DNA from: Branchiostoma lanceolatum
Taxonomy: Eukaryota > Chordata > Leptocardii > Amphioxiformes > Branchiostomatidae
Direction: 5' to 3'
Assembly: GCF_035083965.1 (NCBI RefSeq)
Contig: NC_089722.1
Coordinates: 32,205,958 to 32,269,957 of the forward strand
DNA length: 64,000 nucleotides
In this document: positions 26,317 to 53,653 of the stretch, piece by piece
Numbering within the stretch: the first letter of the stretch is position 1
How the letters are laid out: the number at the start of each line of letters is the position of its first letter
Position numbers and translations under genes: made by a program
Notes under the pieces: generated by a model
The model's input: the letters and a program-made list of their open reading frames with translations, nothing else
Told to the model about the DNA's origin: nothing
Databases searched by the model: none

Positions 26317-26849
26317 TATTAATTTGTGTGAGATGTGAAGTCGGAAGTGTATATCATATCAACCTCCTTGATCATATGCTACCCCTGCATTGCTAAAGAT
26401 TTCATGAATTGAAACGAAAGACTGAAAATTGTTTTGAAATATATTCCCCTTGGCTTTAGGTTTCCTTTCACCGTGTATGCTGTATCAAAACGTGTCCGGT
26501 ATATGCATCTACTTTAGTGCCCCCCTAGAAAAGACATCGGGAAAGACCAGTACACACATGTAGGCACTTGAAATCTGATTTTGGAAATAAATTATTGTAA
26601 AGTATGACGTTATGATGTTACGCTGTGTACATCTTAATTTAAGAAGTAGGCTTTCTTCTAAATGAATCTTCCTGATAATACACGTACACACTTTGTTCAG
26701 AATCGGAGTTGCTCAATAATTCTTGCACATTATAGAAAATTATAAATGGAAGTCCCATATAGCCTTTTTTGACGCCGTAGGGTTGTGATCTGCTGTATTG
26801 GTACACGGTATTTGAAAGCGGAGCCCATCCCTCTCCTTCCACTACCTTT

Positions 26850-27005
26850 TACCTCTCCAACTGAAGTCAGGTACCCATGCTTACACCTAGGTTGCCCTTT
26901 CAAAAGGACACACCGTCTAGGAGTGAATGCCAGGAATCGAACCCGTGACCTCTCAATCTCGTGTCGAATTTAATAACCTAACCATTAACCACCATTCGAC
27001 GCCAC
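26850..27005 (-). mobile_element. tRNA-derived SINE
   Basis: Minus strand shows GTGGTTAATGGTTAGG (A-box-like) and GGTTCGATTCC (a canonical B box), followed by GAGTGAATG-type sequence. The anticodon arm is not convincing, so it is a SINE rather than a tRNA gene. Confidence 0.65.
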
Positions 27006-27404
27006 CGGAGAAATGTATACTAAATACCAAAAATTGTATTGAATTATAAACTCCTAAAAAGAAAAGCAACAGGCGTATCCTACGACAATCAGATTGTCGG
27101 ACAATGGTTGAAATGCAAATTTTGAGGTTTCGTGTCTGTCAGTCATAAAATAACTGTAGAGGCTAGAATAAACTTACAAAACTTACAACAGGCAGACCAT
27201 GGGAATGCACTAGTATAGTATATAACTGTTGCAATACACTGCAAAACTTATCCCCTTTAGAAGGCTTCTTAGCTGGTCTACTTTTGGCATATAATGTGTA
27301 TGTTTCTGATTGAATATCATGTATCAGTTGTAACCAATTTCTGACAGTCATCTAGACAGGAAGACTGTTGCATAGACTACTAGAAGAAAATTGAATATAC
27401 TTGA

Positions 27405-27670
27405 TAATCTCCAAGCAGAGGTTGGTGGGGAAGATTGTGACCTTTTTATCCTATGTCCTGGTTGTGTTAGCCTCCGTTGCAGGCTCTGAAGCGGCTTTTA
27501 GGGGGGCTAAATAATACACTTTTTGCAGCCAGATGGTTACGGGCTGGCTGCATATTTAGCCCCCCAAAAAGCCGCTTCAGAGCCTGCAACGGAGGCTATG
27601 GTTGTGTCGGCTCTCGGGGCATACGATAAAAAGGGCACAAACTTCCCCACCAACCTCTGATTTGAGAGTA
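27405..27670. mobile_element. Foldback element interrupted by a second foldback
   Basis: Ends TAATCTCCAAGCAGAGGTTGG and CCAACCTCTGATTTGAGAGTA, flanked by exact TATACTTGA on both sides. A second element (27467-27598) is inserted at its centre with its own exact 9-bp duplication. Confidence 0.92.
27467..27598. mobile_element. TAGCCTCCGTTGCAG foldback element, 132 bp
   Basis: Ends TAGCCTCCGTTGCAGG and inverse, flanked by TGGTTGTGT on both sides. It is nested inside 27405-27670, so it is the younger insertion. Confidence 0.92.
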
Positions 27671-27688
27671 TATACTTGACATATTTCG

Positions 27689-27908
27689 TAGCCTCTACCA
27701 GGCTCCAGAGGCGGCTGGAAAGAGTAGAAATTAGCCAAATAGACAGAAAAAACATGCAAGAGGAGTTAGTCTGCTATAGGGGTACAGTTTGCCGCTCTGA
27801 ATGGCATATTGGACCATCTCTCCATAGCCGATTCCCTTAGCATACTATTCACTCTATTTGGCCAATTTCTACTATTTTTCCAGTCATCCGCGTGGCCTGG
27901 TAGAGGCT
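27689..27908. mobile_element. TAGCCTCTACCAGGC foldback element
   Basis: Ends TAGCCTCTACCAGGCTCC and CCTGGTAGAGGCTA with inner AATAGAGTGAAT-type arms; no clear target duplication. Confidence 0.8.
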
Positions 27909-28242
27909 AGTTAGTAGGGGGATCATCTCCGATAGTTTACCCACGCTCCCACATATTTGTTCACGCCACGGTTACTAACTTTAGTCAATGAGGGTTTTAT
28001 AGTGCATTCTCTTAGGTGAGAAAGCATGAAATAGACCTACAGCTGGTTTTATAGTCATCAGTTCTGTGTGTGATGTCAGTTTTGGTTTTGTGAAACCTGG
28101 TGAGAAAAAAAACACAAGGTGAGAAGTACCGTGCGTGGGGAATAATCGTTTGATAATGACGTCATCGGTGGTGGTGCGTAGTCGATTTATTTTATCGTCT
28201 GCGTAAAGTTTGCGTGAGAAAATGCACACGGTAGAGAAAATA

Positions 28243-28386
28243 TACTCTCCAAGCAGAGGAGGGGTTTCGGCTGGTTTTTGTATAGCCAACCCAACACAAA
28301 AGAAAGATGACAAAGTAGAAAGCCCGACAAAAACGCCTAGAAATACGTCAAAAACCAGCCGAAACCCCTCCTCTGCTTGGAGAGTA
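28243..28386. mobile_element. TACTCTCC foldback element, exact 9-bp duplication
   Basis: Ends TACTCTCCAAGCAGAGGAGG and inverse, flanked by GAGAAAATA on both sides. The left inner arm is shortened relative to the right. Confidence 0.92.
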
Positions 28387-29006
28387 GAGAAAATAGCGGC
28401 CAGTCAAGTCGGCAAACATGCAACAACATAAATAGATAAATAAACAACAACTGGTCTTGTGAATGAATGAATGAGCCAATGAAAAAAGAAAGAAATGAAC
28501 GGAGGGATAAATGTCTGAGCTTATGGTACTACAGTAGTAAATAAAAGATACGGACGACAAATAACAATATATTCCACATAAAAAAATAACCGAAATTAAA
28601 TGCAAATTTTAGCTTTTGAAATTAGATAGTGAATAATCAGCCAACAAATTGCAGAATATTTCTTTGGGTGTCGGACATCTTTTCTAATGCTTGTTTTTAA
28701 CCTGCCGTTCACATACAGCTGAAAAATGCTGTCTACAAAAACAAAACTCTCCTGATCAAAGATAACACTACAGAAGTCCTCAGTTTTACTGTGGCTTGGG
28801 AAGTGAGAAACATATTTGAGTTCTTGGAAAGTATAACATGTCTCCTGTCGAACAGAAAATCAATTTTACCGGAGTCGGTAACTCGTGCTCCAAACCTCAT
28901 GGGTTTTGGAACGGTTTTGAAGTCTGTCCGCTCGGACCAATTAGAGATTTGTACAGACACGCTTACTCAGAGTACTCTGTCTAAGTTGGATAAGGCTGAT
29001 GTTTTG

Positions 29007-29181
29007 TAGCCTCCACCAGGCCCTCCTACGGTCGTATTGATCGTAGAATTCGTCGTCAGAAAAGGGAATAATTAGCCAGTAGAGTCAGTCCATGGTGAAG
29101 ATCACATTTCGCCCGAGCCTGCAAATGAAACCCTGGCAAATACTCTCCTTATAGCCGGCATAGTTAGTCCGGTAGAGACTA
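29007..29181. mobile_element. TAGCCTCCACCAGGC..AGACTA element
   Basis: Left end TAGCCTCCACCAGGCCCTCC, right end GGTAGAGACTA, flanks GATGTTTTG / GTTGTTTTG (8 of 9). Interior blocks GTCAGTCCA and AATGAAACCCT recur in 29429-29625, 32025-32199 and 17804-17979. Confidence 0.85.
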
Positions 29182-29428
29182 GTTGTTTTGCGGGAGACAG
29201 TTTTATAACTAGCCGCGTAGTCTGGCTCAACTTATGCTGATGTCTTCTAAGAAACTGTAGCAGAAATTCTTCATTATGAAGGAGGGAGATAGCAAGTATT
29301 CAATAACTTATATCGTAAGGAAAGGGGGGGGGGGTCGCCACTCTAGACGTTATATTTTGATACGTGGATAAATTCCATTCAATTCACCTGCACACATCGA
29401 ATGAACTTCGTCATACTCGCTCATAGTA

Positions 29429-29625
29429 TAGCGTCCACCAGGCTTCCTACGGACGGATGGGTCGTAGAATTCGGCTGCAAAAATGAATAATTGGCCAGTA
29501 GAGTCAGTCCACTGTGAGAGTCAATATTTCGCCCGCGCTTGCAAATGAAACCCTCTACTCTAGTGGCGAAACTTCCCTGGAAAATATTCTCCCTATAGCT
29601 GGCGTGGTTAGTCTGGTAGAGACTA
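29429..29625. mobile_element. TAGCGTCCACCAGGC..AGACTA element
   Basis: Second copy of the family at 29007-29181; flanks CTCATAGTA / GTAATAGTA match at 7 of 9. Confidence 0.82.
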
Positions 29626-30157
29626 GTAATAGTACATGTAGAATGGTTTTCAAATAATGTCTTCTTTTCTTTTCTTTTTAGATGAAGGGATGCCGATGAA
29701 TGATGTAATAGAAGGTACAATAACGTTTTGGTGTAGCGTAAACTATCTGTACTTTGTATAGCACAACAACGACAACAACACATTCAAATGATAGCCTGAA
29801 AGCCAGGGTCTGCATTGGCCAACTCTTCGGCTCCAGTGTTGACATGCTCACGAGGAAACTTTGTCTGGCCTCCCGTAGGTTAGCCTTAACTACCGCCTGG
29901 CTTCCAGGCTACACGTGCAATGAAAATTCTTACGTAACAACATTGGTAGTCTGTATAACGCAAACTCCAGCTGTCCGGGGATTTCTGTCCCCTCCTCGCC
30001 GCTATGCGGTTACAAGGCGGCAAGCCGTTACAGGAGCTTGATTGAGTTCATGCTAACAACATTGGGAACGCTTGATTGACAAGATATCGATGAACACCTA
30101 TAAACAAGTGCGTGATTATGATTTTGAACAATGTAAACTGAAATAAAACTAGCCTCC

Positions 30158-30314
30158 GTTGCAGACTCCTTCCGGCTGTTTTCTTTTTCAAGTGACAGTT
30201 TTACTATTACCTTTTTTTCTTGTTCCTTCTCGGCCAGCAACATGAAAAAAATGTAATAGTTAAACTGTAACTTGAAAAAGAAAACAGCCGGAAGGAGTCT
30301 GCAAAGGAGGCTAG
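30158..30314. mobile_element. TAGCCTCCGTTGCAG foldback element, 157 bp
   Basis: TAGCCTCCGTTGCAGACTCC and its inverse with inner TTTCTTTTTCAAGT arms. No matching 9-bp flanks, so it may have been rearranged. Confidence 0.85.
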
Positions 30315-30343
30315 AACTGAGCTCTCTGGAAGTCTTCCCTACG

Positions 30344-30606
30344 TAGCCTCCGTTGCAGTCCTTTTCCCCGCGGCGTTTTTTTTTTCAATTTTTTTTGGGG
30401 GGGGGGGGGGGCGCCGCGTATCTGCTTGGGATCTCGTATCCGCTATAGACCCTGTAACTGCTTCCCTAGCGGCAGTTACAGGGTCTATAGCGGACACAGG
30501 GGGACGGCGGATACGAGATCCAAAGCAGATACGCGGCGCCCCCCCCCCCCCAAAAAAAATTGAAAAAAAAAAAACGCCGCGGGGAAAAGGACTGCAACGG
30601 AGGCTA
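30344..30606. mobile_element. 263-bp nearly perfect palindrome, TAGCCTCCGTTGCAG family
   Basis: Ends TAGCCTCCGTTGCAGTCC and inverse, flanked by exact TTCCCTACG. Arms of about 110 bp include a G15-17 run and its C-run complement and are nearly identical, so the insertion looks very young. Confidence 0.93.
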
Positions 30607-32199: not shown

Positions 32200-33960
32200 C
32201 AGAAACCCTACGTTCAGCTGCCGACATCTCCTAACACGGAGTCGCTAACAACTTGAACGGATTTTAGTGGGAGTCACGACAACTCGGGACTCGAGCCGTT
32301 AATTTTTGCACATAAATAGCTCCCAACTTTCTCACGAGCATTCCAACGTTTCACACTTCTCTCCGAAGCCAAAAGAACAAAGGACAAAACACGCTCGTTC
32401 ACACAGCCGCAGACGACATGGCTGCGTAGTCGAGAGGATTTTTACACATGGCCTTATGGCTTTGGCGGCTTCACGAGCAGTGTCTACAACGTGGGGATTT
32501 TATTTTGCATATTCGCTTTCTCTTGTTGTCGGCCGTATCGTAGGATTTTTGACTCATGAAATATTCATCAGAAAAATCTCAAAAGTGTCGCTTATGTTTT
32601 CATTTATAACAATTTCTAAACATATTCTTTTTCACAATCTAATACATTTCAAGTCTACGTCCAATACACGCCCGCTACATTGTACACAGTATAGTCAAGG
32701 AGGTTATATAAACTTGGTACATGTATACTGTATATTGGTATACTGTATAGTCCGGTACTCCTTACAACAACAAAAAAACAAGCCGATTTGTAAACAAATT
32801 TATACATGTTATTTCGACACAAAGACGGTGTCTTTTTACTATGGGAGTATCGATAGGCAATGTGAAAAGAAGGAAAAAATCTCCTTCCTTTGATTATGAA
32901 AATAATTACCAAAATAGTTGACATCTTATATCTATATATTTCATATCCACCCTACAACAAAGGGGACACAGGAAATCTCAAATCTTCTTCTTCTCTTGTT
33001 GTGATCTTACAGACTTGAAGGACGACAGTTTTGTAACTTTCTGTTTCAAATTTGTCAGTATTTGGTAGAGCGCAGATCATAATATATTATCGGTGTTTTT
33101 TCCCTCCCAAACGAGGCCTCGTATTGTTTTCCCAATTAATTACAGAACAAAATCTTCCTTAGATAATTTGTTAAATCCGACACATCTTTAGTTAGCATCA
33201 TTACTTGAAAAAAGTCACATGGGAACAGTTGAGAAGATTCCTCTCTCCTAGGATGAAAGACAATTCCCGGTAAAGGTAAGGCTGTCATAAAACGATTTAG
33301 GTTTCTTCTGTGTAGTGTTGGCGCCGGGCTGTCTGGTGGGAGGAGTAGCACAGTATGGGGCTAGTAGTCCTAACACTGAGGCCCACCGTACCATCTCTAC
33401 ACACACACGATAAAAACACACCATCAAAAAACATAGTTTACAAAATCTCCACTTCTGGTAGGTTATTCCTTTCCCCAACGAGGATAAACTATCTAGAGTA
33501 AAGATTTAACTCTGGGATTGTTTGATTTATTCTAATTGTGGACATAACTCAAATTTGGCATGTAGTTAGGTTGTCTGATGGCTTCGTTTGGACACACAGG
33601 ACGCAGTTATAATTAAAACGATATATAAGTATACACCGCCTGAAGATACAATATACCCAAGAAATAAAACAGTAAGCGAGATATTGAATATATGTTTTGA
33701 GAATTCATGAAATGTAAGCAAAGTATAGCTTGTCCTGTACAAGGCAAAACAGACGCTTGTCGGAAGTACTGTTCCTCGCCCGAGGCAATATTGTTCTGAA
33801 AAGAGCATGTTTCCCTTTGATTATCCATTTGTCTTCGTCTAAAATATCGATTGTAAAACCCCGAAAACTGCGAAGTGAGAATCGCGCACAATGCATTAGT
33901 CATGTCCCCACCGCGAGCACGTTTTCTTACCTCTTGCGAAAAACGAGAAGTAAGTGCGCT
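32200..33960. other. Intergenic, nothing recognised
   Basis: Upstream of the T-box promoter. Open frames here, including one of 195 codons at 32306-32893, show no family motif or convincing codon bias. One unpaired CAAGGAGGTT motif lies at 32698. Confidence 0.45.
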
Positions 33961-34201: not shown

Positions 34202-37200
34202 ATGATGTACGAATCCGAGGACGTGTTGACACAGCGGGCCCGAGCCTTCTCCATCAACAACATGCTGACCCAGTCCCCGCACGCGTTCCCTTTCCCGGGG
34301 TTCCCCATGGCTCAGGCCGCGCCGGCCCCACCGCCCGACCCGTGCGCTTTCTCAGGTAAGAACCGTTCTCCTCGCATCCAAGTTTTCAACCCGTTTCGTC
34401 CATGTTTGCTCTCCGTAGAGTTTTCGTGTACGCAGTACGTTGTATTCGTGAATCTAACGTGCTGTCACATCGTTGTTACACACAGATCGTTTCGCGACGG
34501 ACTTCCACATGACAGCGGACCACAAGACACAACGCCTCGGGCTGGGGCACCTCCCCGCACCGCAGAACTTCCCACCACCCTCCGCTCTCAAAGACATGAA
34601 GGTCACCCTCGAGCAGAAAGACCTCTGGGACAGCTTCCACGACATCGGCACAGAAATGATCATCACAAAAGCCGGCAGGTATGTTACAGTCTTTCCCAAC
34701 CTAAGATTCCGTAATATAAACTTTGTTTAGAAGTTGTGTGCCGCAAAATGTAAACTCACGTTTGAAACCATAGCACTAAAAACAACAGGAAGCCTTGCTA
34801 ATGTTTATACCTTTATGCTTTGTAAACGCAGTCAAACCACAATTCAGCGTCTATATAAAACATGTTTATATTTTCAACGAGCTTACAGTATTTTCTTGTA
34901 AATATGTACATAGGCTGGTATAAAGAATGTTAGTAAGTGACCGCGTTATTTTCGTTCCAAAGTTAGTACGGCAGGGTTCTTGGTACGATAATTTGTGTCA
35001 AAGCGCGAAGTCGGTTTTCTCTCTGTGTTGGCCGGTTGATTCTCGCTCACTCACAAATTCGATTAGCACTCGCCCTCTGTCCACAAAGAAAGAAAATCGC
35101 CCTGTTTGTGCCAACATGTGTCTTCTTTTGACTACCGCCATGCGTGCCGCCCGCGTGCCGATTCAACAATCGGCCAAAGATCGGATCCTGATTCCGAACT
35201 CTTTAGCTTTCCAAAATTTGACGCAGAAGTATGCAAATTGATATGTCTTCTTTTTCTGAAGGAAAAATGTTGTTATAAAAAAGATACAGATCCTGAAAAG
35301 TACTCTAACTGACCGTGGCTGCTATCTTTTTCGTGAAAATTTTGTCCTATACAGTACATGAGGAAAATACAATGGCCACATACGCGAGGCAAGATTGAGC
35401 TAAGCCAGTATCCTGCTGCAGTGTTATTCTAAGCACATTCAAATTCATATTTTATAGGAGTATAAGTCTTCTCGTTAAAAACAAAGGTTGACAAAAATTC
35501 TGCGCTGCCTGGATATGATGTAGTTGAGATGTAGATGATACGTGTCGTACAGGTGGGAAACGCTGAGGATAAGAATTGTCTTATCTTTCGCGGTTTTGTC
35601 GGTTGTTTGTCGAAACCATCGGGCCGACAAAGGCGACGATGCGCACGGTAGATAACGCATGAATTCCGGAGTCCTTGTTCGCGAGTAATAAAAGATAAGG
35701 ACTCAAACAGATTGCCAGAAAATCACATAAACTTGATAAATTAATTTTGGCAATCCTTAATTTTTCCATGAGAAATAGGGTTTCTTTTAGTTCATTCAAA
35801 CGGCAATTTAATTTTAAGAGTTCTTGTTGAAAGTTTGATAAGAACACAAACAAAATCTTTCATAACAGGTACATTATCGTGTCAAACAGTCTTTGTTACG
35901 TTTGTATGTAACTTCTAAGTAAAAACAAAATTTTAAGTGTGACTTCGACACCTCGGCTTCTTTGAAAACACCCTAACAAGAAATATAAACCGTCTTCAGC
36001 GTCGCAAAGCTCCTAACAGTAATATATTTTCTGTGAAAAATTCCGGTATTAACTGTGGGAAAGTTAGCGAGTGTAGGAGGTTTTGGTAGCGGGGACACCT
36101 TGTATTGTCTCCCGCAAATGAACCAAACTCCCCCCCTCACTCCCCCGTGTTATAAAACCAGCGGAGACAAAACAACACCACTCTTTCTCACGGTTGTTTA
36201 TACTACAGCGTCTTGACAAAGTTTACGCTTTCCAACAGACCCTTTTAAACGAACCATAAACCGTTTACATGCCCACAACTGTTTTTGTTTCGTAAAGTTT
36301 ATATTAGGAAGCGGAGTAAGAAAGGCTGAAAGACTACATTGTCAGAAGAACTTGTGGAACAAAAGGACGAAGCTAGTTCTGCTATTCTGTTTGCTCGTTG
36401 TGCGGTCTAAAATAAAGGAGTCAAAGACTTACCGCACTTCACAGACATGTGTACGAATTCCATATTGCCATCTTAGTTAACACTTTTTAAAATTTAGCTA
36501 GAAAATTGTTCAATGTTGCTAGCGCACCCGTGTTGAACTCTCATTGTGCTCAAATTACGAAACGAAGAAACCAAGCGATCTTAATTCTCCGAAGAACGAG
36601 CAAATTTTCCGTGCGTTTTGCGAAGCTCAATCTAAACTACGAAGAAACAAAGCGATCAAAATACCCCAAAGAACGAGCACATTTTCAGTGCGTTTTGCGA
36701 ATCTCAATCTAAACTATGAAGAAACATAGCGATCTAAATTCCCCGAAGAACGACCAAACTCCCAATGCGTTCTGCGTAGTTCAATCTTAACTTGAGTTCT
36801 TTGTTTTCCCCTTTGGTAGACGGATGTTCCCAACCTACAAGTCGTCCATTTCCGGTCTGGACCCCAACGCCAAGTACATCCTTCTAATGGACATCGTTCC
36901 CATGGACGATAACCGCTACAAGTACCACAACTCCGAGTGGGTGGTGAGTACTGTAATCCACTTTATCTTCACGATAGCTAAATTTCACAGTGTAAGGAAA
37001 ATGGAGGATGCTTGCTGCCCGATGTGCCATTTGGCACGGGAGAATCTAAGTCAAAGTATGTAAAGAAAATGGCTTTTCACTGAACTTAAACTTCACAGTG
37101 GTGGCAAGCGATTTACAAAACGGACGTGTGAAGAAATCATAGATAATAACAACAGGTTTTTCACTGTGATGATAAATTAAAATTCATGGTGCAGAAGTGA

Positions 37201-40200
37201 ACATGAAGTTGCAGTGAAAGAAACAAGAATTACTGTACATGCGTCTATTTCTAGTCACGAAGGTCATACCACAGGTTTGAGGTATTCTCCAAGCAGAGGT
37301 TTCGATCGAGGAACTAGTAGTGGCCAGGATTTTTGCTCTCAGTGTTCATAATCCCGGCCACAAGTAGTCCCTATCGAAACCTCTGCTTGTGGAGGTGTCG
37401 TATCAGTTTTGGCTGTCTGTTGTGAGGTTATCGCAGGTCCATCCTGACGGTCAATTTTGTTGTCGTGCGACTTGCCGTAAAATCTTCGTTGCGATCACAA
37501 AATGCTCTATGTAGGAAACATGCATGTCACATTGTAAAAGCAAAAGACACAGGAACAAATTACAATCTTTAAACGTTGGAGAATGTGTCAGCACCTATGT
37601 GTGGGGTACATTTTATTTCTTTGTAGATTTAATATCTAATTTTGTGTTGCAACCAATGTAAATTATAGCCGCAAAGTGGTTGAATACTGATGCAAATGCA
37701 ATACTTCCGAGTAGATTCAAAGAGTTATTGAGAAAAACTCATTAGCAAACACGTCTGTTTGAAGGCTAAAACTCATATACACACGTTGTACGAACGATCT
37801 TTATGTTGAAACAGTGATTTAAAATGTTGAACTGTTTGTTTATTTAGGTCAGCGGGAAGGCGGAGCCGCTGATGCCGGGCAGACTGTACATCCACCCCGA
37901 CAGCCCGGCTACAGGAACGCAGTGGATGAAACAGAGCGTCACCTTCCACAAACTCAAGCTCACCAACAACGCCATGGACCAACAGGGACATGTAAGTCAA
38001 CTTGTTAATTTGTTTGTTTGTTTGTTTGTCATTACAGTGGGATGTATCGTTTTGTTTCTTCGGTCGTTTTATTACGAGATGGAAAATTGATTTTTAAGAG
38101 ACACGTACATAATTTTGCCTCCCTTTTTCGGCGTCAAATGTAACGTTAGACTCAAAGCGGATTTCCTTAAAAGTTGGTTGGTAAAGAAGAATTGTACGAA
38201 GTGGTATGGAGGAAAAAAGAGCATGGATGACTTTAAACCATGTAAAGTAATGTCGCGATTCTCACTTTATCTGTCTTTTGAATCGCGAGATTTTCATCCG
38301 TTAAACTGGCGATGTTCTCGCTCTTTATCAGTCTCGCTAATTATCGCGAGATTTTCCAGCTGATACGGAAACAGGTGGCAAACCTTGTACGGACGCTGCC
38401 AAATAACAATAGATACCCAAAATGGCCATATTGTTTTCGCCTCACGTTATTCGGCCACAAAAACAGTTTTCTATGTCGTTCTTTTCTTTTATCATAATTT
38501 ACTGCAACATATAACATTTTCGTATACAGAGAAATGCAGTCAAACAAACTGTCAAAGAAATGTAGTTTTCAAATGACCAAAATAGCAAAACCTTGAATCT
38601 AATTTTTAAAATGCGATTGTATCAGTCACCCGTATACTCATGATATTATAATATGGAACATAATCTATGCTAAACATGGGGCACCAGATTTTCCGTATTG
38701 CCGCTTTGGGACACTTCACTTCATTAGAATTTATAGGACGATAATCTCTGAACAAATCCATAAACCAAGTCATTAGGGATATCATGGGGCGGACACTGCG
38801 ACATGCTAGTACCAGCTTTTTTTTTAATTTTTCAGCTTTCTAGACCTATTCACTAGTGGTAGCTTCCAGTGCAGGCTTTTTTTGTAGTTCTTTTTGGCGT
38901 TATGTGTGTTGTGACTATTGCAGTTTTGATTGTACCCGGTGCCATACGTTCTAGTAATATTATTTCGACTTATCCTGGGTGCCATACTAGTTTTATGGGA
39001 AGGATGGCAACAAGGCTACTGTGGAAAACCCGGTACATTCGAAACAAAGGGCCCTTCCGAGAAGCCTACTTCTAGGCTTTTCCGCAGTTTTAATGTGGAA
39101 AAAAATTAATTGTGGGAAAGTTCGCGAGTGTAGGAGGTATTGGTAGCGGGGACCCGTCGTTTCGTCTCCCGCAAATGAACCCAACTCTCCCCCTCACTCC
39201 CCCGTGTTATAAAACCAGCGGGGCCAGTACAACACAGCTCTTTCTCACGGTTGCTTACGTTAGCGTCCCGTCACAAAGTTTACATTTGAAAACCAATGCT
39301 TGTAAATTGTAAGCTTTTTTTAATACATTTCTGACTAGAACATTGTTGTTTTGTAATCTAAGTTGTTTTGTAAGCTCCGGAAGTCCGGTACGAAAAGAAT
39401 TCACAAAAAAATATCTCTAATAAAAAAATCGCGTATATTTTGTCATGTGAGAATCCTTGCATTGTATACCTTTAACATTTTGAATTTGCATCCTAGAAGT
39501 GTTGTACAAGTTAACATACATTGTATCACATGCAATTTATAAGCTCCAATACAATTTTTATGTCTGAATGAATTTTACGTGCTCTATTCTCTCATACAAG
39601 CGATTGCCAAGTATGAATGTAAAATGTTTATCGTGTAATTAATACTACAGCTAATATTTTTTGTTACAACTCGCTAAAGCTAGTATAACTTCTTAATATA
39701 AACTTAACAAAACAAAAACAGTTGTGGGCATGTAAACGGTTTATGGTTTGTTGAAAGGGGTCTGTTGGAAAGCATACAGCTAGCCTAACGCCCTCCTTCT
39801 TTCCACTTCTAGATCATCCTGAACTCCATGCACAAGTACCAGCCCCGTCTGCACATCGTCCAGGCGAACGATGTCTACAGTCTGCGGTGGAACTCCTTCA
39901 GCACCTTCGCCTTCCCCGAGACAAGCTTCATCGCCGTCACAGCCTACCAGAACGAGAAGGTGAGGTCCAGAAAGGTTCTTCTGATAAAGAAAGTTTCAGA
40001 TTCCCATGATGGGACTCGAACCCGTGTGTATAAAAGCAACAGATTTTGAACACCTGTATTAAAGATTATTGTAACAAGAAAACATTTCGGTCCTTTTGTC
40101 GTATGCAAAGACTAGCCTCTACCGGTACCAGGTCCCGCGAATCGCTGGGAAAATAGTAGAACTGGTCAAATAGAGTGAATAGTATGCTTAGGTAGTCGGC

Positions 40201-43200
40201 TACGGAGAGAGGGTTCAATATGCCATAACACTAACAGCCTTCAAATGAAACCATGGCAAACATTGCTTAGTCAGTCAGGTAGAAACTATAAAAAGATGGC
40301 GAATACCAGTAAACAGTATTCATATCAAGATAATAGCCTTACAGAGCGATGTTTTTTTGTGGTGGTTTTCTAAAACTGACTTTAACTTTTTTTAGATAAT
40401 CTCCGTCTAGGAAAAACAAAACTGACTTAAGAGCGATATCAACACACGTGCAGTTAGTCCACAATCCTTACTCTAATCTGGCGTATTTCACACGTTTGCA
40501 ACACCTAAACGTAGAAATCTTTTGTTCGGATTTCTTCTCGTGAAGAACACCGCACCACACAAGACGATTGTTTTGGCCGCCAAACTCTCTCCATGCTTTA
40601 GCTCTGGGGCGAATCTAGGCTGTAAAAAGAGGGATTTCTTTTTTGTTGAATTGAAGAACTGCTAGCGGGGGTTTCTCGATCCGAACAGATGTAGCCTTTC
40701 TGTCAGGTTTAAAGTGCCGGGGGTAATGTACCGTACAGGGCCATAAAGTACTTAGTCTTTCAAAAGGGGGGACCGTCGTATTATCTTGTCCATTTTCGAC
40801 GGTGCGTTAATAGACTGAGGATTTGAAAAATAGCCATTTGTGTTCTATTTTCCGACAGAAGGCTTAATCCTTTGTATACAATAAAAATTGCAATTTATAC
40901 AAGAAATTAATAAATTTGATACAGGGAAGTGCGCTTAAGGACATCTCTTCACAACATTATTCTTAACAGAAACTTGTCCTGTTCTTGGGAATATGTTTAT
41001 ACAAGGAGGTTTTGTGGTTTATATAACCTCCATGATCTTGAGTTGACTTTTCTTAGTTAAGCTGCTAACTAATTGTTATTGTTAACTTGCAGATAACTCA
41101 ACTGAAGATAGACAACAACCCGTTCGCCAAGGGATTCCGTGACAACGGCGGCAACCGAAGGTAAGTTTATCTCAAAAGAAGATTGTTTTCTTTTGTTCCG
41201 AAATACATCAGAGGCTTTTGTAGAACCACCTCGTTTGTTTTTCCAACCCTTAAAACTCGGAAGGTTTTATTCCTCTGGTTTCTTGAGTGACTGTTAAAAT
41301 TTTTGTAGACCTTTGTCGACCGTCGATTTTGTCAAAGTCTTGTTCTTGAAAATCCCACCACAACTGTGACTTAGTGCGGATCTGAGGGGAAGAATGTCGT
41401 GAACACTGTTGTTGATGTGTCGTATAAGATTCGGCTGATTTTTGACCGTTAAGGTTATCGTATATCCTTGTCAAAGCCTCGTACGAAGAATATGACCTAG
41501 TCCTAATCTAATCACAAGATATCTGAAGACTAGTTTATGTAAATCGTACCACTAAACTTGTGTAATTCCTACAACACACTCGCCATGTATGATAGCCCCA
41601 ACTTCCGGTCATAAAGTCTACAATAGTAGCTTACCTGTGTTTATAAACACCACTAGCTAACCACACCGAGTCTAAAATTATGTTATAAAATCAAGGTGAA
41701 TATGCACAAAGATAGGAATGAGCCTAGACCTAAAATCTAGAATAGTGCAATGATCAATAATAGTATTTTTGTTGTGATAATCGCCTCTCGATGATAATGA
41801 ATACAATGTTACATTATCCGTGGAGTATCCAAAGTCACATATGGCCGTGCTGCGATTTTCAGTTAAATGGCCTTCAGAAGAAAGGGTTTTTCCTTCGCTC
41901 TATTGTGTCCCTTTCTCTTGAACGATCTCCTCTTCACTTGATTGACCCTTTTAGAGACGATAGAAACGCTCGCTGTAGTTGCAGCGCTCTTTAACAGTCT
42001 CCATTGTGTGCGTGCGTCTGTCTCTCTCGCCCTTTAATTGAATTTAAGCGTGAGATATTCTTTCTTCTTCTATAGCAGGGAGCGCGCCATCGTGAGTACG
42101 AAGCGGAGCGCGGACACAGCGGGAGACCCCGGTGACTCAGGTAAAACCCTTCCCTCACTAGGCTATCTCCTACATTGATTCGCTACGGAACCTCTATACT
42201 CCCCTATTTATCAAAGCTAGATAGATTCGCACTGAAAGGCGCCCTGTGTGGCGTTTCTCTCATTGAAAAAAAAAAAAAACGTTTCCGATGTTGAGTAGCG
42301 GAAGAAGGTGGTGGCTCGTGTGCCCCCGCAATGATATGGTTGTTTGTTAGGGGTGAGAAAGGGCAGTAAGGCGCTCGCCTCGGCGCACGCTTCCAACAAT
42401 ACGGACTAGATCGACCTTGATTGAGACGTTTACACCCACTGTACCTCGTTAGCCAGTTCTTTTTTAGTGGACGTGATTACGGCAGACAATTCTTAAGGGC
42501 TGTACAGTAGCCTGTTTTTATTAGACGAAAGAGGGTGTTTGAAATGGGACCTCCCATACTGAGTAACTACTTGGTGTAAATCTTACTCCTGACGTGTGTT
42601 TAGTCGTGGGTCCTCCCCTCCCCGTGCCTATTATGTGACTGGCGCTTGCATGTCTGATGACACATCTGTTGTATCTGTGCCCATCCTACAGTTAGCAACA
42701 AGCGGCTGTGTAACGGAGGGGAATCCGAGCGGAACAACAGACCACCGAGCTGTGACTGCAGCGGCGTCGGGGAGGAGAGCGACGTGCCCCGAGGACCGTC
42801 CCACTACAACCCGCCTGCCCAGACCGACGACCTCAACCCGTGCGGCAACCCCCTCACCATCGTGACCGACGACATCACGGCCGACTTCGCCAAGGAGAGA
42901 TCGCCGGGTGTGCCGCACGCTCTCGGCGGACAGGGAAGCGCTCAGCTCCCGACGAGGGACCAGACGGGCCTCGGTAGCTGTCAAGGCGAGGACATCAGAT
43001 GTCAGACGCGCACAGCCTGTGCACAAGACCCGCGTGACCTTCTCGCCTCTCCAGACGGCACCGACTACCAGCAGTACCATCCGGGCGGGTACAGCAGTCA
43101 GACCGCGGGAGACCCTACCGACAACACCGGCGTGCATCTCGGCTACGGCACGGGGCCGTCATTCCAAGAACTGTCCGTACAGACAGACCTGGGCAGCACG

Positions 43201-45150: not shown

Positions 45151-45447
45151 TTGAACCAAAGACTGTTAGATACAACTACATTTTAAAGGTCGGGGGTTTG
45201 TACCTGCGCACTTTCATGTAGGGTACCGGCCACCCCATGTTACCTAAAAACTAAATTCAGCATACACTCAGTAATAATTCTAGAATAGAATAGAAGGAAA
45301 TAGATACTTAGTTTATGAGATATTTAAATTGTAATAAAACTGGACTAAACAGTTGAGGCTGTTTGTAATATAAACGATGACGATCGGAAAGCTTCCAGCA
45401 TTCAGGGTCAAAGTTTAACTTCCAGTGTTATCCGACCATACCCAAGG

Positions 45448-45645
45448 TACTCTCCAAGCAGAGCTAGGGTTTCGGCTGGTTTTTAACGTGTTTTTAGGCG
45501 TTTTTGTCATGCCTTCTACTTTGTCATCGTTTTTGTTGTGTCGCCAACCCAAGACAAAAAAAAAGATGACAAAGTAGAAAGCACGACAATGACGCCTAAA
45601 AACACGTCAAAAACCAGCCGAAACCCATGCTCTGCTTGGAGAGTA
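45448..45645. mobile_element. TACTCTCC foldback element inserted into a micro-insertion
   Basis: Ends TACTCTCCAAGCAGAG and CTCTGCTTGGAGAGTA, flanked by ACCCAAGG on both sides. The duplicated bases belong to a CAAGGAGG micro-insertion whose 7-bp repeats CCATACC lie at 45436-45442 and 45667-45673. Confidence 0.9.
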
Positions 45646-45930
45646 ACCCAAGGAGGTTAAACCTTGCCATACCCAAGTTCGTGTATAGATTTCGTTCTTC
45701 CATGTCACTTTTTCAAGAGTGACTTTTATGAACATTAGATGTGGTCAGGGAAACTATATTACACGCGTTTTGAACGATGGTAACCATTGAAGATTCTAGT
45801 ATATCCAGACATAATGACATACGTTGTGAGATACGAGGGGTGAGCAATAAATAAAGCCTGAGCAATAAATAAAGCACACGACCCAAATTTCGGGGCATAA
45901 TCATAAGGCATAAAGCCTTTTATGAATGTG

Positions 45931-45963: not shown

Positions 45964-46002
45964 ACGTGTTTTCATGTCGGAATGACAACTTTCTGTACGT
46001 GA

Positions 46003-46078: not shown

Positions 46079-46633
46079 TAACCTCCTTGCTTTACATAAC
46101 TTATGATATCAATGTGTAAAGTTGTGAATTATTACGCCAATTATACGCCGTATGGCGGGTTTCATACGAAGATTAGTCATGTTTCAGTAGGAACAAAAGT
46201 TTATGAAATCTTCTCTAAACTGACACCTAATTGTTGCAGGCAGCATAAAATGATTAAAGAGGTCGTGGGAAAAGTCGGTACACTTGGCCCACTGTTGTCG
46301 GTGAGACTTTGTCACTTAACACCTAGTGTCCAACTTGTGAAACATGTACCACAGTCCCTTTTGTCGTTCTGTCTCACTGAGACAAATTATGATATTTTAG
46401 CATATCAAACCTGGGTGAAAATTGAATAATTGCTAACATTTGTTAATATTCAAATTCTAGTCGGTTTATCGTTTGACATCGCGCGTGGGTTTCGCTGATG
46501 TGTGAATACTGTCGTCTGATTGTGACGTGCGCTAGACGGCTCGGCGTGAACTTGTCACAAGGTTTCGGAAACCATATTTAGCCTACACTGCAGACATTCC
46601 TACGGCTGTCGCTTTGATATTGCCATGTTTTCT

Positions 46634-46799: not shown

Positions 46800-48140
46800 T
46801 CACGTTCTGTTCTCTGCTACTTTGTTGACTTCTTGCTAAACTATTTTATAGACATGAAGTAAAGGGATACCAAGGAGGTTAAAATTTAACCTCCTTGGGG
46901 ATACAAAGCTTGATCTCTATTTCGTCGTATACAAAATCTAATTCGTCTACGTCCTCCTGAAACAAAAAAACTTGCCCTACGAATTAAAATACAATAGTAT
47001 ACGTATACATGAAGGTTAGATATCTATATTTGAAAATATCAGACAAAAATCCTTTGACGTTTTTAGTATCATTGTCATAAGAATGTCAGCATGAATTACT
47101 CAATTCTCTTTAAGACCTGAATTTGGTGTATTTACAATCTTCCCTAATAGTTCACTCATTTAATTGGACCATTTGTGACTGCTGTCCTATGCCGTATATT
47201 TTCAATGTAGGTTTCCCCATTTCATACATCTTGGCAACGTGGAAAAATTCATATTTCTAATGGCTTTAGATAAACCCTTGATTATTAAACACACCTGTAC
47301 TTATATCTACACTATTACTAAGATGCGAGAAGACTGAAGAGGCCAAATTAACGTAATCAGCGCTAGCTTATCATTGTATATATATATGTATATATGTTTT
47401 TGCAAACTGTGATGTTTTCTGTTGTGACCTGTACTGAACCCAGTGGGTATGTGTGTGCAATAAAGGTCTTCATTCATTCATTCATTAAATGTGGAAGGAT
47501 TGCACTATTTTGCCGCCCCAGACAAAATATTAGCGTAACATGAAACAAAACAGTATTAGACATTATATGTACAATTCACTGTCTAATAATCCATGATGAC
47601 AAACAAATCGACAAAACGAGGACACTGCTAATAAAGTTTATTCTATTTACAACCGGGCAAGGTTGTAAATTAGAATTAATGAAGTCGGGCGACCTATAAT
47701 TCCCTGATTAACAAACACAGTACATCAAAACATGTGTTCAACTGTCACATTGACGGGTTAGCACATATGCTAGATATGGACATAATTCATTTTCTTCTAA
47801 GTGTAATACGAGAATTGAAGGAATGCACATATCTTGATTTTTAGGCACGTGTTTTCAATGATGTTCTTGGTCTTTTCTACCATTTTTTTGGCAAGATTCC
47901 TAACATCGACGATATTTATAAGCACAAAACTCCCCTTTGTTGTTTTTAGATCGAGAAATTGACGAAATGAACTGAATGACATTTACATGCGTACAGATGA
48001 TTTAATAAAGCAAGGACCTCTTTTAATCAAGGACATTGTTAAAATGTCACTCCCACCATTTGAAGCTCCTTGCTTACACCAATTTAACAAATACAGTGTG
48101 AAATGTCAAACGGCAGTTTTGAAGGTCGCAGGTCGTAAAC
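46800..48140. other. Intergenic, nothing further recognised
   Basis: AT-rich; contains the micro-insertion at 46871-46897 and a short (CATT)n run near 47472. No gene seen. Confidence 0.5.
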
Positions 48141-48222: not shown

Positions 48223-48392
48223 TTAATCTCCAAGCAGATCTACACGGTGCACCTAAAATCGTATATGCTAGCCAGAGAAGCTCCAGTCAGTCAGATAAGC
48301 TACGGTGCGGACTGGAGCTTATCTGGCTGACTGGAGCTTCTCTGGCTAGCATATACGATGTTCGGTGCACCGTGTAGATCTGCTTGGAGATT
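48223..48392. mobile_element. AATCTCCAAGCAGA foldback element, 9-bp duplication
   Basis: AATCTCCAAGCAGATCTACA with near-identical inverse arm and TCTCTGGCTGACTGGAGCTT core; ATGTCTGAT lies at 48214-48222 and 48393-48401. Confidence 0.9.
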
Positions 48393-48419
48393 ATGTCTGA
48401 TAAGGTACTAGTTAATTGC

Positions 48420-48431
48420 ACGCACACACAT

Positions 48432-48493
<62 letters not shown>

Positions 48494-48695
48494 ACACATA
48501 CACAGTTACAGGTACACACATACACACACACTCACTCACATACACACACACATGCACGCACTCATATGCATTCGTATATATACAATATACAAACACAAAC
48601 ATACACACACATACACACATACAAACACACACACATATACCTCCTTGCATATACATACACACATACACAGTTGCACACACACACGAGCGCACACA
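48420..48695. repeat. (CA)n-rich microsatellite region
   Basis: Pure CA run to about 48487, then CA/TACA mixed repeats. Overlapping Thr-His and Cys-Val frames are artefacts. Confidence 0.95.
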
Positions 48696-49225: not shown

Positions 49226-49381
49226 TAGCCTCTACCAGGCCCCGCGGATGGCTGGAAAAATAGAGGGTCCAATATTCCAAACTGTAACTTCTATAGCGGA
49301 CTAGCTTCTCTGGCATGTTATCCGTCTATTTGGCCAATTTCTACGATATTTCCAGCGTCCTATAGAGCCTGGTAGAGGCTA
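49226..49381. mobile_element. TAGCCTCTACC foldback element, 156 bp
   Basis: TAGCCTCTACCAGGCCCCGC and inverse; flanks ACTATAATC / ACTATACTC (8 of 9). Confidence 0.88.
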
Positions 49382-50234
49382 ACTATACTCTATTTAGACA
49401 GCAGAAATAGGTAGCTAATTTTCTGCGATTAAAAAGCTAAGGTGACATCTAAATTATGTTTTAAACAATGAAGAATCAACAAGAGCTTGTCACAATGGAT
49501 CAAAGAAGGTACAAATCAGATATATTATCACATGAATGAAGATCCATGTCTCAAAGAAGCCGCCGTGTTTTAGAGATAAATCAGGAAAGGTGAGAAGTAA
49601 TTAATAGGCGCACACAGGTGGAGTGCGCGTCTCAAGGGTCGACTTCTTTTGTCTTTAAGTAGTTCTCACCTGGTCTCGAACTGCTCCCTTTGTTTTTGTG
49701 CAGACACGCTTGTTGAGAACGGCTCGTACGGTCACATCATTTTGTACCTTGGAGGTTTATTAGAAACCTGGTGCTTGTACCGAGAAACTGAAAGGAAAAG
49801 GGTTCGGGACAAAAATTGTCAGAATGACGAAAATTTAAGTATTGTACATAACGACGTCAACTCTAATATTTGCGCCGGGTATGTTCTGAGACCGCCACAT
49901 TCAGAAAAAAATATCAATACAGAATCAGTGATCTTCAACGCATGGGCACTTCAGATAACCAAGTGTTTGGTTCAAGTAAGGAGGTTTAAACCTCCTTGGT
50001 TCCAGACATTATTGAGAATGCCTTGATAATACTGTTTCTTTCAAATACATGCGTCGATTTAAGGGTATGATTAAGGGTATCAAAAGGAAGTATGAATGCT
50101 TACGTTATGAAATTATATTTGTGTCTCTATGTGAGTCTATCAATTGAAATGCTAATATAGCCGCATGCAGTAAATGTTAACATTTTGATATTCACAATTT
50201 TTTTACAAATATGTTGGATCGGACCTCCTGCACT

Positions 50235-50303
50235 TGCAAGTGAAACCCTGGCAAATGTTCTTCCTATAGCCGGCGTAGTTAGTCTGGTATAGACTATGCA
50301 CTT
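50235..50303. mobile_element. Fragment of the AGACTA-end element family
   Basis: AAGTGAAACCCTGGCAAATG, CCTATAGCCGGCGTAGTTAG and GTATAGACTA match the right half of 29007-29181. Confidence 0.65.
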
Positions 50304-51411
50304 CGCAAAAGGATAGAAATACTAGCAGAATTCAGTTGAATTTCTACTGTAAAACTAAACTGAATTGGAAAAAATTGTATCACAAACACATCCAATGGTG
50401 ACTTTTTTCTTATAGTTTTTCACATGACTGTCAAATTTTTTTTTTCCATAGCCAGGGGCTTGAACTAGTCAACAAAATGTGTTACTTTGTCTTAAAAAAG
50501 TGAGGAATCTATTGTTTCTTAGTATTTGGCGACTCTTTCCGAACTGCGCCGTAACAGACAAGTGTCGTGATTGGCGCGACATCAGACGAGATCGTATTCA
50601 TGAGAACAGAATCAATTAAACAAACACTTTGCTCTGGGAAAAAGTACTAGTAGTCTGCAGTAGTGTACTTAAATCCATGGATAGTTTAGCTTCTTTTTGT
50701 ATTTTTTTTTGTATGTGGGTATCATATAGATATGCTGAGTGCTACGGTAAATATATTTCTTGTAAGTCGCTTGCTACAAACCAAAGATTTTTTTTTCTGA
50801 AACCTCCTTGTACAAAGTAAACGTCGAGTAATATATTATCAATTTTAGAGGATAACTGTTCCTATTGCAACGTGACTCTTGTATGAAATAATTTGTTTGT
50901 GGGACTACAGAGGCAGACAGACATGTATGAAACGATCGCTCCTGTCTGTAACAAGACATACATAATTAATCATGAATAAATTCTAGCCTCTTCAAAGGAG
51001 TCTTATCCGAATGATGACGTATCGTGAAACGTGCGGCGGCGTACTTCTCAGTTCCGCCCGACTTCTCACACTGTCGTCTGACTCACGACTGACGTGTCTA
51101 CTCAACACACCTTTACAAATGTCTCCTCAGGAATCGTGTCAGAACTTAAAAACCTGGCGAAATCATGCCCTACAAAGATTATTAGTGTAAAAAAAAACTA
51201 TCAAACAAACACGGTGACCGAGCGAGCTAAGCGGATTAAAAACGCTGCACTGTTTGGTTAAAGGTATTGTCCTGTTTGTAAGTATATCTTCTGAGCTAGA
51301 ACAATCGAAACGTGAATCGCACTTTTAGCCTAATAGCATTGATACACAGCTATGCCTGATAAGAATAGCCCCCCTCCATTTTTGAGTTATTTTGCCACCC
51401 ATGTAATGTTA

Positions 51412-51647
51412 GGACCCTGTCACACTTGCGTATATTCAAAGGTACGTGAGTTGCGCATTAAAATTTCTTATGGTTTAAGTACTTAGTAAGGTTTGCGGGG
51501 AAAAAGTTGTTTTCTACTTTGACCCACCGTTGTGCAGCCTAGTGATCGAACCTAAGAAATCACTTATTCGGCTGCAAACTTAAGCCATAAACATGTTACT
51601 ACGCAACTCATGCGGACTTGTCTATACGCACAAGTGTGACAGGGCCT
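51412..51647. mobile_element. PIF/Harbinger-like MITE, 236 bp
   Basis: GGACCCTGTCACACTTGCGTATA and inverse TATACGCACAAGTGTGACAGGGCC, with TTA just outside both ends. Confidence 0.72.
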
Positions 51648-52689
51648 TTACACCCCCATTCCACGCGATGAAGTGATTTTAAAGAGCGCTCAAAAAATTA
51701 AAAAAATCTTTTTAATGCTTTGTTGTCTTTTTAGTCATACTTTTACATTTTGATTAATATAACAATTGTTAAATCAAGGATTACACGAAACCCAATTTAG
51801 GTCACAGCGTGATCGCCGTCTAGTGAAATGGGGGCCTTAACATCATTTATCACTCACTAACATGGTCTTTGTGTACATCTATCCCAAAATGAAATACAAA
51901 TGTCGACTTTTTTACGGACCAGGTTTATTGAACCCACTGTCTTTTTAAATTGCATTTCTACAACTCTGATAAGGACAATAAATAACTGCAATGTAAAATT
52001 AGAACGTGACATTGCTTGCAAAACTTACAGGACGACATAGATTGGTATCTTACACTGCAACTGTTAAAAAAAGACAGACACCTACACAGGTTATACATAA
52101 TTTATCATGAATTAATTACAGCCTCTTCAAAGGTTTCTTGTCGGAATGACAGAACTCCACATTTCTGTGAAACGTGTGGCGGGGCGGCGGCGCGCTTCTC
52201 GGTTCTGTAAGACTTCTCACACTGTCGTCTGAACCGCACGACTAGAACACTTCTCCACACCTTTACAAACGTCTGGTCAGAAGTGTGAAAACTTGCGAGT
52301 TCATGCCCCAAAAGGATCCGTGTCATAAACAGAGTGAACGCAGTGACATACTAGCAGCAAGAAGTTTGAATACCTAGGCTCTCTGGGTACAAATATAGCC
52401 AAGTAGTTGTAATGATAAATTCCTGAGCTACAACAGTCACACAAAAAAAGAAATTGTAGGCTAATAACCTTTTTCAATTTTGCTAATAAACACTAAAAAA
52501 GTGATGCCTGAGACTAGCTCCTCACTATTTGAGTACGCACTTTGGACATCGACGTAGCGCCTCTTACCCCTAGGCTCTACAAAGAGACGGGGTTTCTGTA
52601 TACATTATACATTTTTATTACTTATCATATGATGATAGGCAAATTATTATAGGCACGTCGGATGAATAGGGCGCTACCGTGATGTATTA

Positions 52690-52784
52690 CTAGTACTAAT
52701 CTCCAAGTAGATCTATCGGTGGTAAGACGGTATCAAAAGGGCCAAGGAGTATCCAAAAGCCACCGATAGATCTGCTTGGAGATT
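52690..52784. mobile_element. AATCTCCAAG foldback element
   Basis: AATCTCCAAGTAGATCTATCG and inverse; GATGTATTA is present at 52681-52689 and 52785-52793, with 8 unpaired bases on the left. Confidence 0.82.
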
Positions 52785-53653
52785 GATGTATTATATTGTC
52801 TTTTCTAATAAGTTCAGTTTCAAAGCCTTTGTGAAGATTATGAAGAGTGACCCGTCTAATATGGAAAACTTTTATTCACTTTGATACGAAACGATGAATT
52901 AGATTGGGATCTAAAAATCTTGCAAAGCTAGGTTGTAACTGTAAGACCAAATTGAAATCAATCCGCCATATTATAATAAGTTAATTGCAATTTCATGCCC
53001 GTAGGCTAATTACAAGTGTACAACAATTATTGACGGTGTACGAACATGACGAAAAACATAAACTTTGATAAAGCATACATGTAAAACAAATGACGAAGAT
53101 GAAACTACGTTGCTAGTCTACGATACGTTTCTAAGTGGTCATCCGCGGTTATTTTCAATGCAAGGTGGCCCATATGTGCGCTGTTTATGAGAAGAAGAAA
53201 AAAGGTAGACATACATGAATCGACCATTTATTGTGTCTGTCAGAAGCTTTACATAACTTATCATGAGCTAAATCCAGCCTCTTCCAAGGTTTCGTGTCGG
53301 AATGACAGTACTCCACAGTTCTGTGAAACGTGTGACACGGTAGCGGCGTACTTCTCAGTTCTGTAAGACTTCTCACACTGTCGTCTGAACCGACTAGGTG
53401 TGTTCACTAGAACATGTCTCCACACCTTAACAAAAGTCTCCTCAAGAAGCGTGTCAAAACTGTCCCGAGAAGAAGTATTGTGCGCCCATGTCCTAAAAAA
53501 GTATGTATCAAAAAGAAATTAAAATCTTTGGCTGAGCAAGGAGGTTGCATTGTCAAAGTAAAAATGTTATCTGTTAGAACAAGGAGGTTAAAATGATATT
53601 TTAACCTCCTTGGTTAGAATACGTTCCGACCTGCAAATTGACCCTTGTGTCAC

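What the first reader, a model, noticed from the sequence alone, without database searches (positions are those of the whole stretch)
26353..53619. Micro-insertions of 7-33 bp built on CAAGGAGGTT, flanked by exact 7-bp direct repeats
Seen directly: 26353 ATCATAT / CAACCTCCTTG / ATCATAT; 40995 GTTTATA / CAAGGAGGTTTTGTG / GTTTATA; 46864 GGGATAC / 27-bp palindrome / GGGATAC; 48634 CATATAC / CTCCTTG / CATATAC; 53573 GTTAGAA / 33-bp palindrome / GTTAGAA. With one mismatch: 25071 GTCATAG / CAAGGAGGTTA / GTCATAA and 49970 GTTCAAG / 22-bp palindrome / GTTCCAG. The inserted sequence always comes from CAAGGAGGTT and/or its complement, while the length and the flanks vary. This looks like target-site duplication by something inserting or leaving almost nothing but terminal repeats. 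The pieces may be excision footprints of a transposon with CAAGGAGGTT ends and 7-bp duplications, or a self-sufficient micro-palindrome that is copied around. I know of no described element this small. 48634 lies in low-complexity sequence and could be chance.
Basis: partly seen in the sequence, partly recalled or inferred. Interest (0 to 1): 0.88.

Follow-up and report, generated by a model that had tools for sequence, protein, structure and literature searches.

The report
Transposon excision scars in a lancelet
Short scraps of sequence scattered near a lancelet gene look like scars left where a jumping gene cut itself out, and their shape matches the scars that the fruit-fly P element is known to leave.

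Summary
CAAGGAGG occurs 15 times (13 loci) in the window; same-composition 8-mers average 1.5. Exact 7-bp direct repeats sit at its boundary at five loci and vanish when the boundary is shifted; 8-bp repeats: 0 of 15. The DNA is Branchiostoma lanceolatum.

Two new results. (1) For 53580, two old local paralogues align across the junction without the insert; one lacks exactly the 33-bp insert plus one 7-mer. (2) Locus 45649 looked unflanked because an 8-bp-TSD MITE landed inside it; without it the site reads CCATACC/18 bp/CCATACC, though there the repeat runs on to 11 bp.

The inserts all differ and several hold one end only, so they are not autonomous micro-elements. They match joints left by Drosophila P excision: target duplication, up to 17 nt of each terminal repeat, microhomology or filler. 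Their 7-mers fit the target of Galileo, a P-superfamily element (GTATTAC; p=7e-4 for five loci, 2e-5 for eleven).

Best reading: end-joining scars of a P-superfamily transposon. "Scar" is near certain; "P superfamily" is likely, but no intact element or lancelet transposase was found. Of 13 loci: five clean, two exact but ambiguous, four with one mismatch, one chance, one unresolved.

The parts
21186..21245 (.). Possible scar: TATAGAG / 46 bp / TATAGAC. A 37-bp near-palindrome CAAGGAGGTTTGGAAT..ATTCTAAACCTCCTT, then an AT stretch, then G
   Evidence: 1-mismatch 7-bp repeat; weak
25071..25095 (+). Scar: GTCATAG / CAAGGAGGTTA / GTCATAA; left-end remnant only
   Evidence: one mismatch in the duplication
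26353..26377 (-). Scar: ATCATAT / CAACCTCCTTG / ATCATAT
   Evidence: exact repeat of exactly 7 bp
32689..32751 (+). Possible scar with filler: GTATAGT / 49 bp / GTATAGT; the first 21 bp look like a 25-bp palindrome lacking CCTC
   Evidence: exact repeat that runs on to 8 bp, with several near-copies; ambiguous
40995..41023 (+). Scar: GTTTATA / CAAGGAGGTTTTGTG / GTTTATA, between the T-box exon at 39813 and the long ORF at 42661
   Evidence: exact repeat of exactly 7 bp; T-box by Pfam
45436..45673 (+). Scar split by a MITE: CCATACC / CAAGG [MITE 45448-45645] ACCCAAGG AGGTTAAACCTTG / CCATACC; without the MITE and its duplicate the insert is 18 bp
   Evidence: exact outer 7-mer pair inside an 11-bp repeat CCATACCCAAG; MITE with exact 8-bp TSD ACCCAAGG
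46864..46904 (.). Scar: GGGATAC / 27-bp palindrome / GGGATAC
   Evidence: exact repeat of exactly 7 bp; one of two such 7-bp-flanked inserts in the window with terminal inverted repeats of 5 bp or more
48634..48654 (-). Scar: CATATAC / CTCCTTG / CATATAC, in an AC/AT-rich microsatellite
   Evidence: exact repeat of exactly 7 bp, low-complexity flank
49970..50005 (.). Scar: GTTCAAG / TAAGGAGGTTTAAACCTCCTTG / GTTCCAG
   Evidence: 1-mismatch repeat
50775..50817 (-). Probable scar: TACAAAC / CAAAGATTTTTTTTTCTGAAACCTCCTTG / TACAAAG
   Evidence: 1-mismatch repeat; both insert ends resemble the terminal repeat
53573..53619 (.). Scar: GTTAGAA / 33-bp palindrome / GTTAGAA; the largest clean insert (could be 17+16 nt)
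   Evidence: exact repeat of exactly 7 bp; paralogous empty sites
54730..54830 (+). Paralogous empty site for 53580; ATAAGAG stands where GTTAGAA[33 bp]GTTAGAA stands in the filled copy
   Evidence: (64% identity over the aligned stretch)
54264..54375 (+). Second paralogue without the 53580 insert (6 extra bases near the site)
   Evidence: (66% identity)
46080..46089 (-). Unresolved AACCTCCTTG; three 1-mismatch copies of its flank 1.1-2 kb upstream, none next to a CAAGG end
53537..53546 (+). Chance match, not a scar: paralogues have the same stretch as CAATGAGTTTGC or shorter forms

Best explanation
The micro-insertions are repair scars. A cut-and-paste DNA transposon (most likely its non-autonomous copies) with ends CAAGGAGGTT...AACCTCCTTG inserted and duplicated 7 bp of target. 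It was later excised by a P-superfamily transposase, which cuts the transferred strand at the element boundary but the other strand about 17 nt inside the terminal repeat. Each chromosome end therefore kept the 7-bp target copy plus a 3' tail of up to 17 nt of terminal repeat. The two tails were joined by microhomology-mediated end joining, sometimes trimmed and sometimes with filler. Shown: exact 7-bp duplications at the motif boundary at five loci, absence of the insert in paralogues of one site, insert interiors made of one or both terminal repeats, and a GT..AC target motif. Inferred: the parent element, its transposase class, the 17-nt cut and the repair pathway.
For: Boundary and length statistics. 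Paralogous empty site lacking exactly 33+7 bp. A nested MITE that splits a scar and hides its exact 7-mer pair. Table 1 of PMC2895639 (section 7 read whole) gives Drosophila P excision junctions: target copy + up to 17 nt of left tail + microhomology or filler + up to 17 nt of right tail + target copy; the 44 of 66 isolates that keep both duplications have inserts of 7-44 bp, median 30, against 7-33 bp in nine loci here and 46 and 49 bp in the two ambiguous ones. The 17-nt staggered cut is stated in PMC7776569 (passages). Galileo, P superfamily, makes mostly 7-bp duplications with consensus GTAGTAC, GTATTAC or GTANTAC (passages of PMC2775673 and PMC4168063).
Against: No intact element with both ends and a 7-bp duplication within 12 kb in the window. 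The GTAGTAC form of the Galileo target fits much less well: 3,402 of 16,384 words fit better, against 250 for GTATTAC, and for the five clean loci p=0.04; the consensus words were tried after the duplications had been seen. The repeat at 45649 runs to 11 bp and at 32696 to 8 bp, so their boundaries are not fixed by the repeat. Positions 11-17 of the terminal repeat vary between scars, so one parent sequence cannot be read off. 46080 is unresolved; 21193, 32696 and 50782 are weak.
Confidence: 0.75

Rival explanations
1. Excision scars of a transposon of another superfamily (hAT, Mutator-like, Dada or an undescribed one) with 7-bp duplications, repaired so that pieces of its ends remain.
For: 7-bp duplications are not exclusive to the P superfamily (general knowledge); no transposase is identified here; the scars and the empty site say only 'excised insertion'.
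Against: Retention of up to about 16-17 nt of both ends is the P pattern; from general knowledge hAT excision leaves few or no element bases, and Tc1/mariner and piggyBac leave 2-3 or none. The target motif matches Galileo.
Confidence: 0.2
2. Tiny mobile palindromes that are themselves copied into new sites by a transposase acting in trans.
For: Two palindromes share the same 13-bp arms at unrelated sites; no parent element in the window.
Against: No two inserts are the same and two of eleven carry essentially one end only, so they offer no pair of ends to a transposase. From general knowledge P-type elements need internal binding sites well inside the ends.
Confidence: 0.03
3. Chance or low-complexity coincidence.
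For: 53537 is such a case; 48634 and 32696 lie in repetitive patches.
Against: Controls by random anchors, shifted boundaries, permuted motifs and permuted 8-mers and the paralogous empty site.
Confidence: 0.01

Closest known systems
Drosophila P element excision junctions (P{wa}, end joining of 17-nt tails; PMC2895639 Table 1)
   Same: Target copies kept (44 of 66 isolates), up to 17 nt of each inverted repeat, palindrome-like joints by short microhomology, occasional filler, insert lengths 7-44 bp
   Different: 8-bp duplication and CATGATGAAATAACATA tails; made in an assay with an identified transposase
Galileo (P superfamily, Drosophila; PMC2775673, PMC4168063)
   Same: Mostly 7-bp duplications; GTATTAC-like AT-rich palindromic target
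   Different: Long terminal repeats and many element copies are known; the word footprint is absent from the main text of both papers; host is a fly
Zebrafish Pdre2 / THAP9 (PMC10983969, passages)
   Same: Chordate P-type element; end starts with CA
   Different: 8-bp duplications; end CATACCTGTCAAC; active transposase shown

Membership tests
P superfamily of DNA transposons (as the parent of the scars) | 7- or 8-bp target-site duplication | tested here: met
   7 of 15 anchors (five loci) at k=7, 0 of 15 at k=8; exactly 7 bp at these five. Not fixed at 45649 (11 bp) and 32696 (8 bp)
P superfamily of DNA transposons (as the parent of the scars) | Terminal inverted repeats starting CA (the fuller form CANRG is recalled, from no call) | tested here: met
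   CAAGG...CCTTG outermost in the two-ended scars 46871, 53580 and 45649
P superfamily of DNA transposons (as the parent of the scars) | Cut 17 nt inside the terminal repeat, so scars keep at most 17 nt per end | tested here: inconclusive
   Nine inserts (all but 21193 and 32696) are 7-33 bp, 9 of 9 at most 34; the two left out (46 and 49 bp) would need filler, as do 14 of 44 fly junctions above 34 bp
P superfamily of DNA transposons (as the parent of the scars) | Galileo-like target motif GTANTAC / GTATTAC | tested here: met
   GTATTAC p=2e-5 (11 loci), 7e-4 (five clean); GTANTAC 4e-4 and 0.004; GTAGTAC only 0.015 and 0.04
P superfamily of DNA transposons (as the parent of the scars) | Transposase with THAP domain, RNase H fold and GTP-binding insertion, encoded by the autonomous element | tested here: inconclusive
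   Not in the 15 ORF scans made against Pfam (13 distinct stretches, while one search lists 162 ORFs of 75 aa or more); no protein named Branchiostoma among the hits shown; the genome is not held
hAT superfamily (as the parent of the scars) | Excision that leaves few or no element bases, 5-8-bp duplications (general knowledge, from no call) | tested here: not met
   10 bases of at least one end remain at 10 of 11 loci

The most novel reading that the evidence does not exclude
A Galileo-like P-superfamily lineage with 7-bp target duplications has been highly active in a basal chordate and is now recorded mainly as scars: up to 11 in 64 kb with no intact copy seen, gathered in 32 kb as if one or a few elements hopped locally around a T-box gene. 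Such scars would form a genome-wide natural record of P-type excision and of microhomology end joining in the lancelet germline.
Probability: 0.3. Interest if true: 0.68.

Novelty: new member of a known kind. Interest (0 to 1): 0.5.

Why it matters
P-type excision scars are known from fly genetics; here they seem to be a common sequence class in a chordate genome. If the density holds elsewhere, each scar marks a jump, gives its exact target and records one end-joining event. That would let one count P-type jumps, test local hopping and read germline end-joining habits in a lancelet without an experiment. It also suggests that very short palindromes with direct repeats can be transposon scars, which repeat annotation would tend to miss (inference).

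Tried and rejected
Literal motif search in papers: CAAGGAGGTT is in 93 papers; 20 titles and abstract starts were seen and none concerns transposons; the other 73 were not looked at. Viral-contig scan for CAAGGAGGTT..AACCTCCTTG: 3 stretches, none with a 7-bp repeat at the boundary, taken as unrelated. Full-length element in the window: 36 left-end and 31 right-end matches at up to 2 mismatches, pairs 20-12,000 bp apart with a duplication at 1 mismatch or less: only the three small palindromes. Other scar-like families: among maximal direct repeats of 5-11 bp (low-complexity repeats dropped) around inserts with terminal inverted repeats of 5 bp or more, k=7 gives only 46864 and 53573; k=6 gives one 36-bp palindrome at 30443, not followed; k=5 gives two that were not printed; k=8-11 none. 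46080: three 1-mismatch copies of its right 7-mer lie 1.1-2 kb upstream, about what chance gives by my arithmetic. 50782: its right 7-mer also occurs 1,984 and 3,902 bp upstream. Paralogue search around all 13 loci: only 53580 gave an alignment across the junction; a third copy at 55165 does not align well there. Rfam: no match at gathering scores. Own genome: not held.

P transposase in lancelet: two protein searches without a protein named Branchiostoma in the rows shown (120 of 242; 14 of 14); neither is sensitive enough to count as absence. Literature on lancelet P elements or their scars: searches (20 of 374 papers listed; 20 of 25; 3 of 3; 8 of 8) showed no title or abstract start that describes them; most subscription papers are outside that library. 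Other listings: 7 of 7; 20 of 28; 12 of 92; 12 of 19; 15 of 161. PMC5802833 and PMC10027918 were seen as passages only; the latter mentions THAP genes in Branchiostoma.

In one search, 22 of 66 isolates of the Drosophila table (those that lose part of a target copy) were left out before the length count. The target-motif test was run on sets of 11, 10, 8, 7, 6, 5 and 4 loci and on several consensus words, without correction for the number of tries; a truncated word of the recalled P target gave p=0.04 (11 loci) to 0.31 (six). In one search the loosest threshold (6 end bases) had a shuffled-motif control reaching the observed 6; at thresholds 7 and 8 (5 observed) the control maxima of 300 shuffles were 4 and 3.
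Full report
What was checked. The window is 64 kb of 41.5% G+C. An ORF at 5348-6193 is 100% identical over 92% of its length to a Branchiostoma lanceolatum protein on a 44.5-Mb contig, and all 18 hits bear Branchiostoma names, so this is taken to be the European lancelet. No genome of it is held here. Two T-box exons lie at 36791 and 39813.

The observation. All seven listed cases are present as written. The 8-mer CAAGGAGG is the commonest of the 280 arrangements of its letters: 15 occurrences against a mean of 1.54. Exact 7-bp repeats flank 7 of 15 anchors (five loci); 400 sets of random anchors average 0.25 and never exceed 3; moving the boundary by 1-8 bases gives 0 or 1; requiring 8 bp gives 0 of 15. 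At these five loci the repeat is exactly 7 bp when extended both ways. The 29 other arrangements of CAAGG give 0-3 flanked anchors, CAAGG itself 8 of 101. The repeat is therefore real, starts at the motif, and is 7 bp long.

(a) The region 53.4-55.3 kb holds old local repeats. Copies at 54730-54830 and 54264-54375 (64-66% identity) align across the 53580 scar without its insert; in the first, ATAAGAG stands where the filled copy has GTTAGAA, 33 bp and GTTAGAA; the second has six extra bases nearby. A third copy at 55165 does not align well there. The same alignments show that 53537 CAAGGAGGTTGC is a chance match. (b) At 45649 the motif seemed to lack a repeat. A MITE (45448-45645, ends TACTCTCC...GGAGAGTA) sits inside the scar between two exact copies of ACCCAAGG; without it the site reads CCATACC-CAAGGAGGTTAAACCTTG-CCATACC. 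A sister copy of the MITE at 22940-23098 also has an exact 8-bp duplication, GGCACAAT. So this scar is older than the MITE. The right flank happens to go on with CAAG, so the repeat is 11 bp here and does not fix the boundary by itself. (c) 50782 and 21193 have 1-mismatch repeats; 32696 has an exact one that runs to 8 bp in a repetitive patch. Tally of 13 loci: five clean (26353, 40995, 46864, 48634, 53573; 48634 in low-complexity sequence), two exact but ambiguous (45649, 32696), four with one mismatch (25071, 49970, 50782, 21193), one chance (53537), one unresolved (46080).

What the inserts are made of. All but 21193 and 32696 are 7, 11, 11, 15, 18, 22, 27, 29 and 33 bp; those two are 46 and 49 bp. 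No two are the same. 46871 and 53580 keep all ten core bases of both ends; 45649 keeps 10 and 5; 41002 keeps 10 and 2; 25078 keeps the left end alone; 48641 keeps the last seven bases of the right end. A mobile unit would be constant in length and keep both ends. A scar after excision would look like this.

Mechanism. The P transposase cuts the 5' strand 17 bp inside the inverted repeat and leaves 17-nt single-stranded tails (PMC7776569, passages; PMC2895639, passages). Table 1 of PMC2895639 (section 7 read whole) lists repaired fly sites: target copy, part of the left tail, microhomology or filler, part of the right tail, target copy. In the 44 of 66 isolates that keep both target copies the insert is 7-44 bp, median 30; 30 of 44 are at most 34 bp. 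The lancelet scars have the same architecture; the largest clean one, 33 bp, can be divided as 17+16. Galileo, also of the P superfamily, makes mostly 7-bp duplications with consensus GTAGTAC in D. buzzatii, GTATTAC in D. willistoni and GTANTAC in six genomes (PMC2775673, PMC4168063, passages). These words were taken from the literature after the duplications were seen, and several words and subsets were tried, so the p-values are optimistic.

What is not shown. No intact element was found in the window and no protein named Branchiostoma appeared in two limited P-transposase searches. The parent, its class and the 17-nt cut are inferences. Terminal-repeat positions 11-17 differ between scars, so more than one subfamily may be involved.

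Distribution. P elements hop locally (PMC7776569), so a local trail is possible but unproven. An extrapolation to the whole genome from one window would not be sound.

Verdict. A real and well-supported observation with a known kind of explanation: P-type excision scars, here in a chordate and at a striking local density. The idea of a self-mobile micro-palindrome is not supported.

Noticed in passing
45448-45645 and 22940-23098: MITE family with ends TA(C/A/G)TCTCCAAGCAG..CTGCTTGGAGA(G/T)TA and exact 8-bp duplications ACCCAAGG and GGCACAAT; many further end matches across the window. Superfamily not determined.
   Followed up: partly
50965-56089: Cluster of diverged local repeats (families D3, D4, D5 and D13), with copies near 50996, 52147, 53241, 53993, 54523, 54963 and 55901, also near 45986.
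   Followed up: partly
30443-30490: 36-bp palindrome ACCCTGTAACTGC...GGCAGTTACAGGGT flanked by the exact 6-bp repeat CTATAG; perhaps another small element or part of a larger inverted repeat.
   Followed up: no
7552-7974 (-): ORF with a marginal GIY-YIG match (22.2 bits, cut-off 22.6), perhaps a Penelope-like retroelement remnant (recalled).
   Followed up: no
21193-53612: The scars are gathered in the middle of the window (span p=0.007 for 11 loci, 0.05 for six, 0.11 for the five clean ones); possible local hopping.
   Followed up: partly
L001:5260-5296 and L003:12222-12258: Two IMG/VR contigs share an identical 37-bp palindrome with CAAGGAGGTT ends and the same 12-bp flanks, without 7-bp direct repeats.
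   Followed up: no
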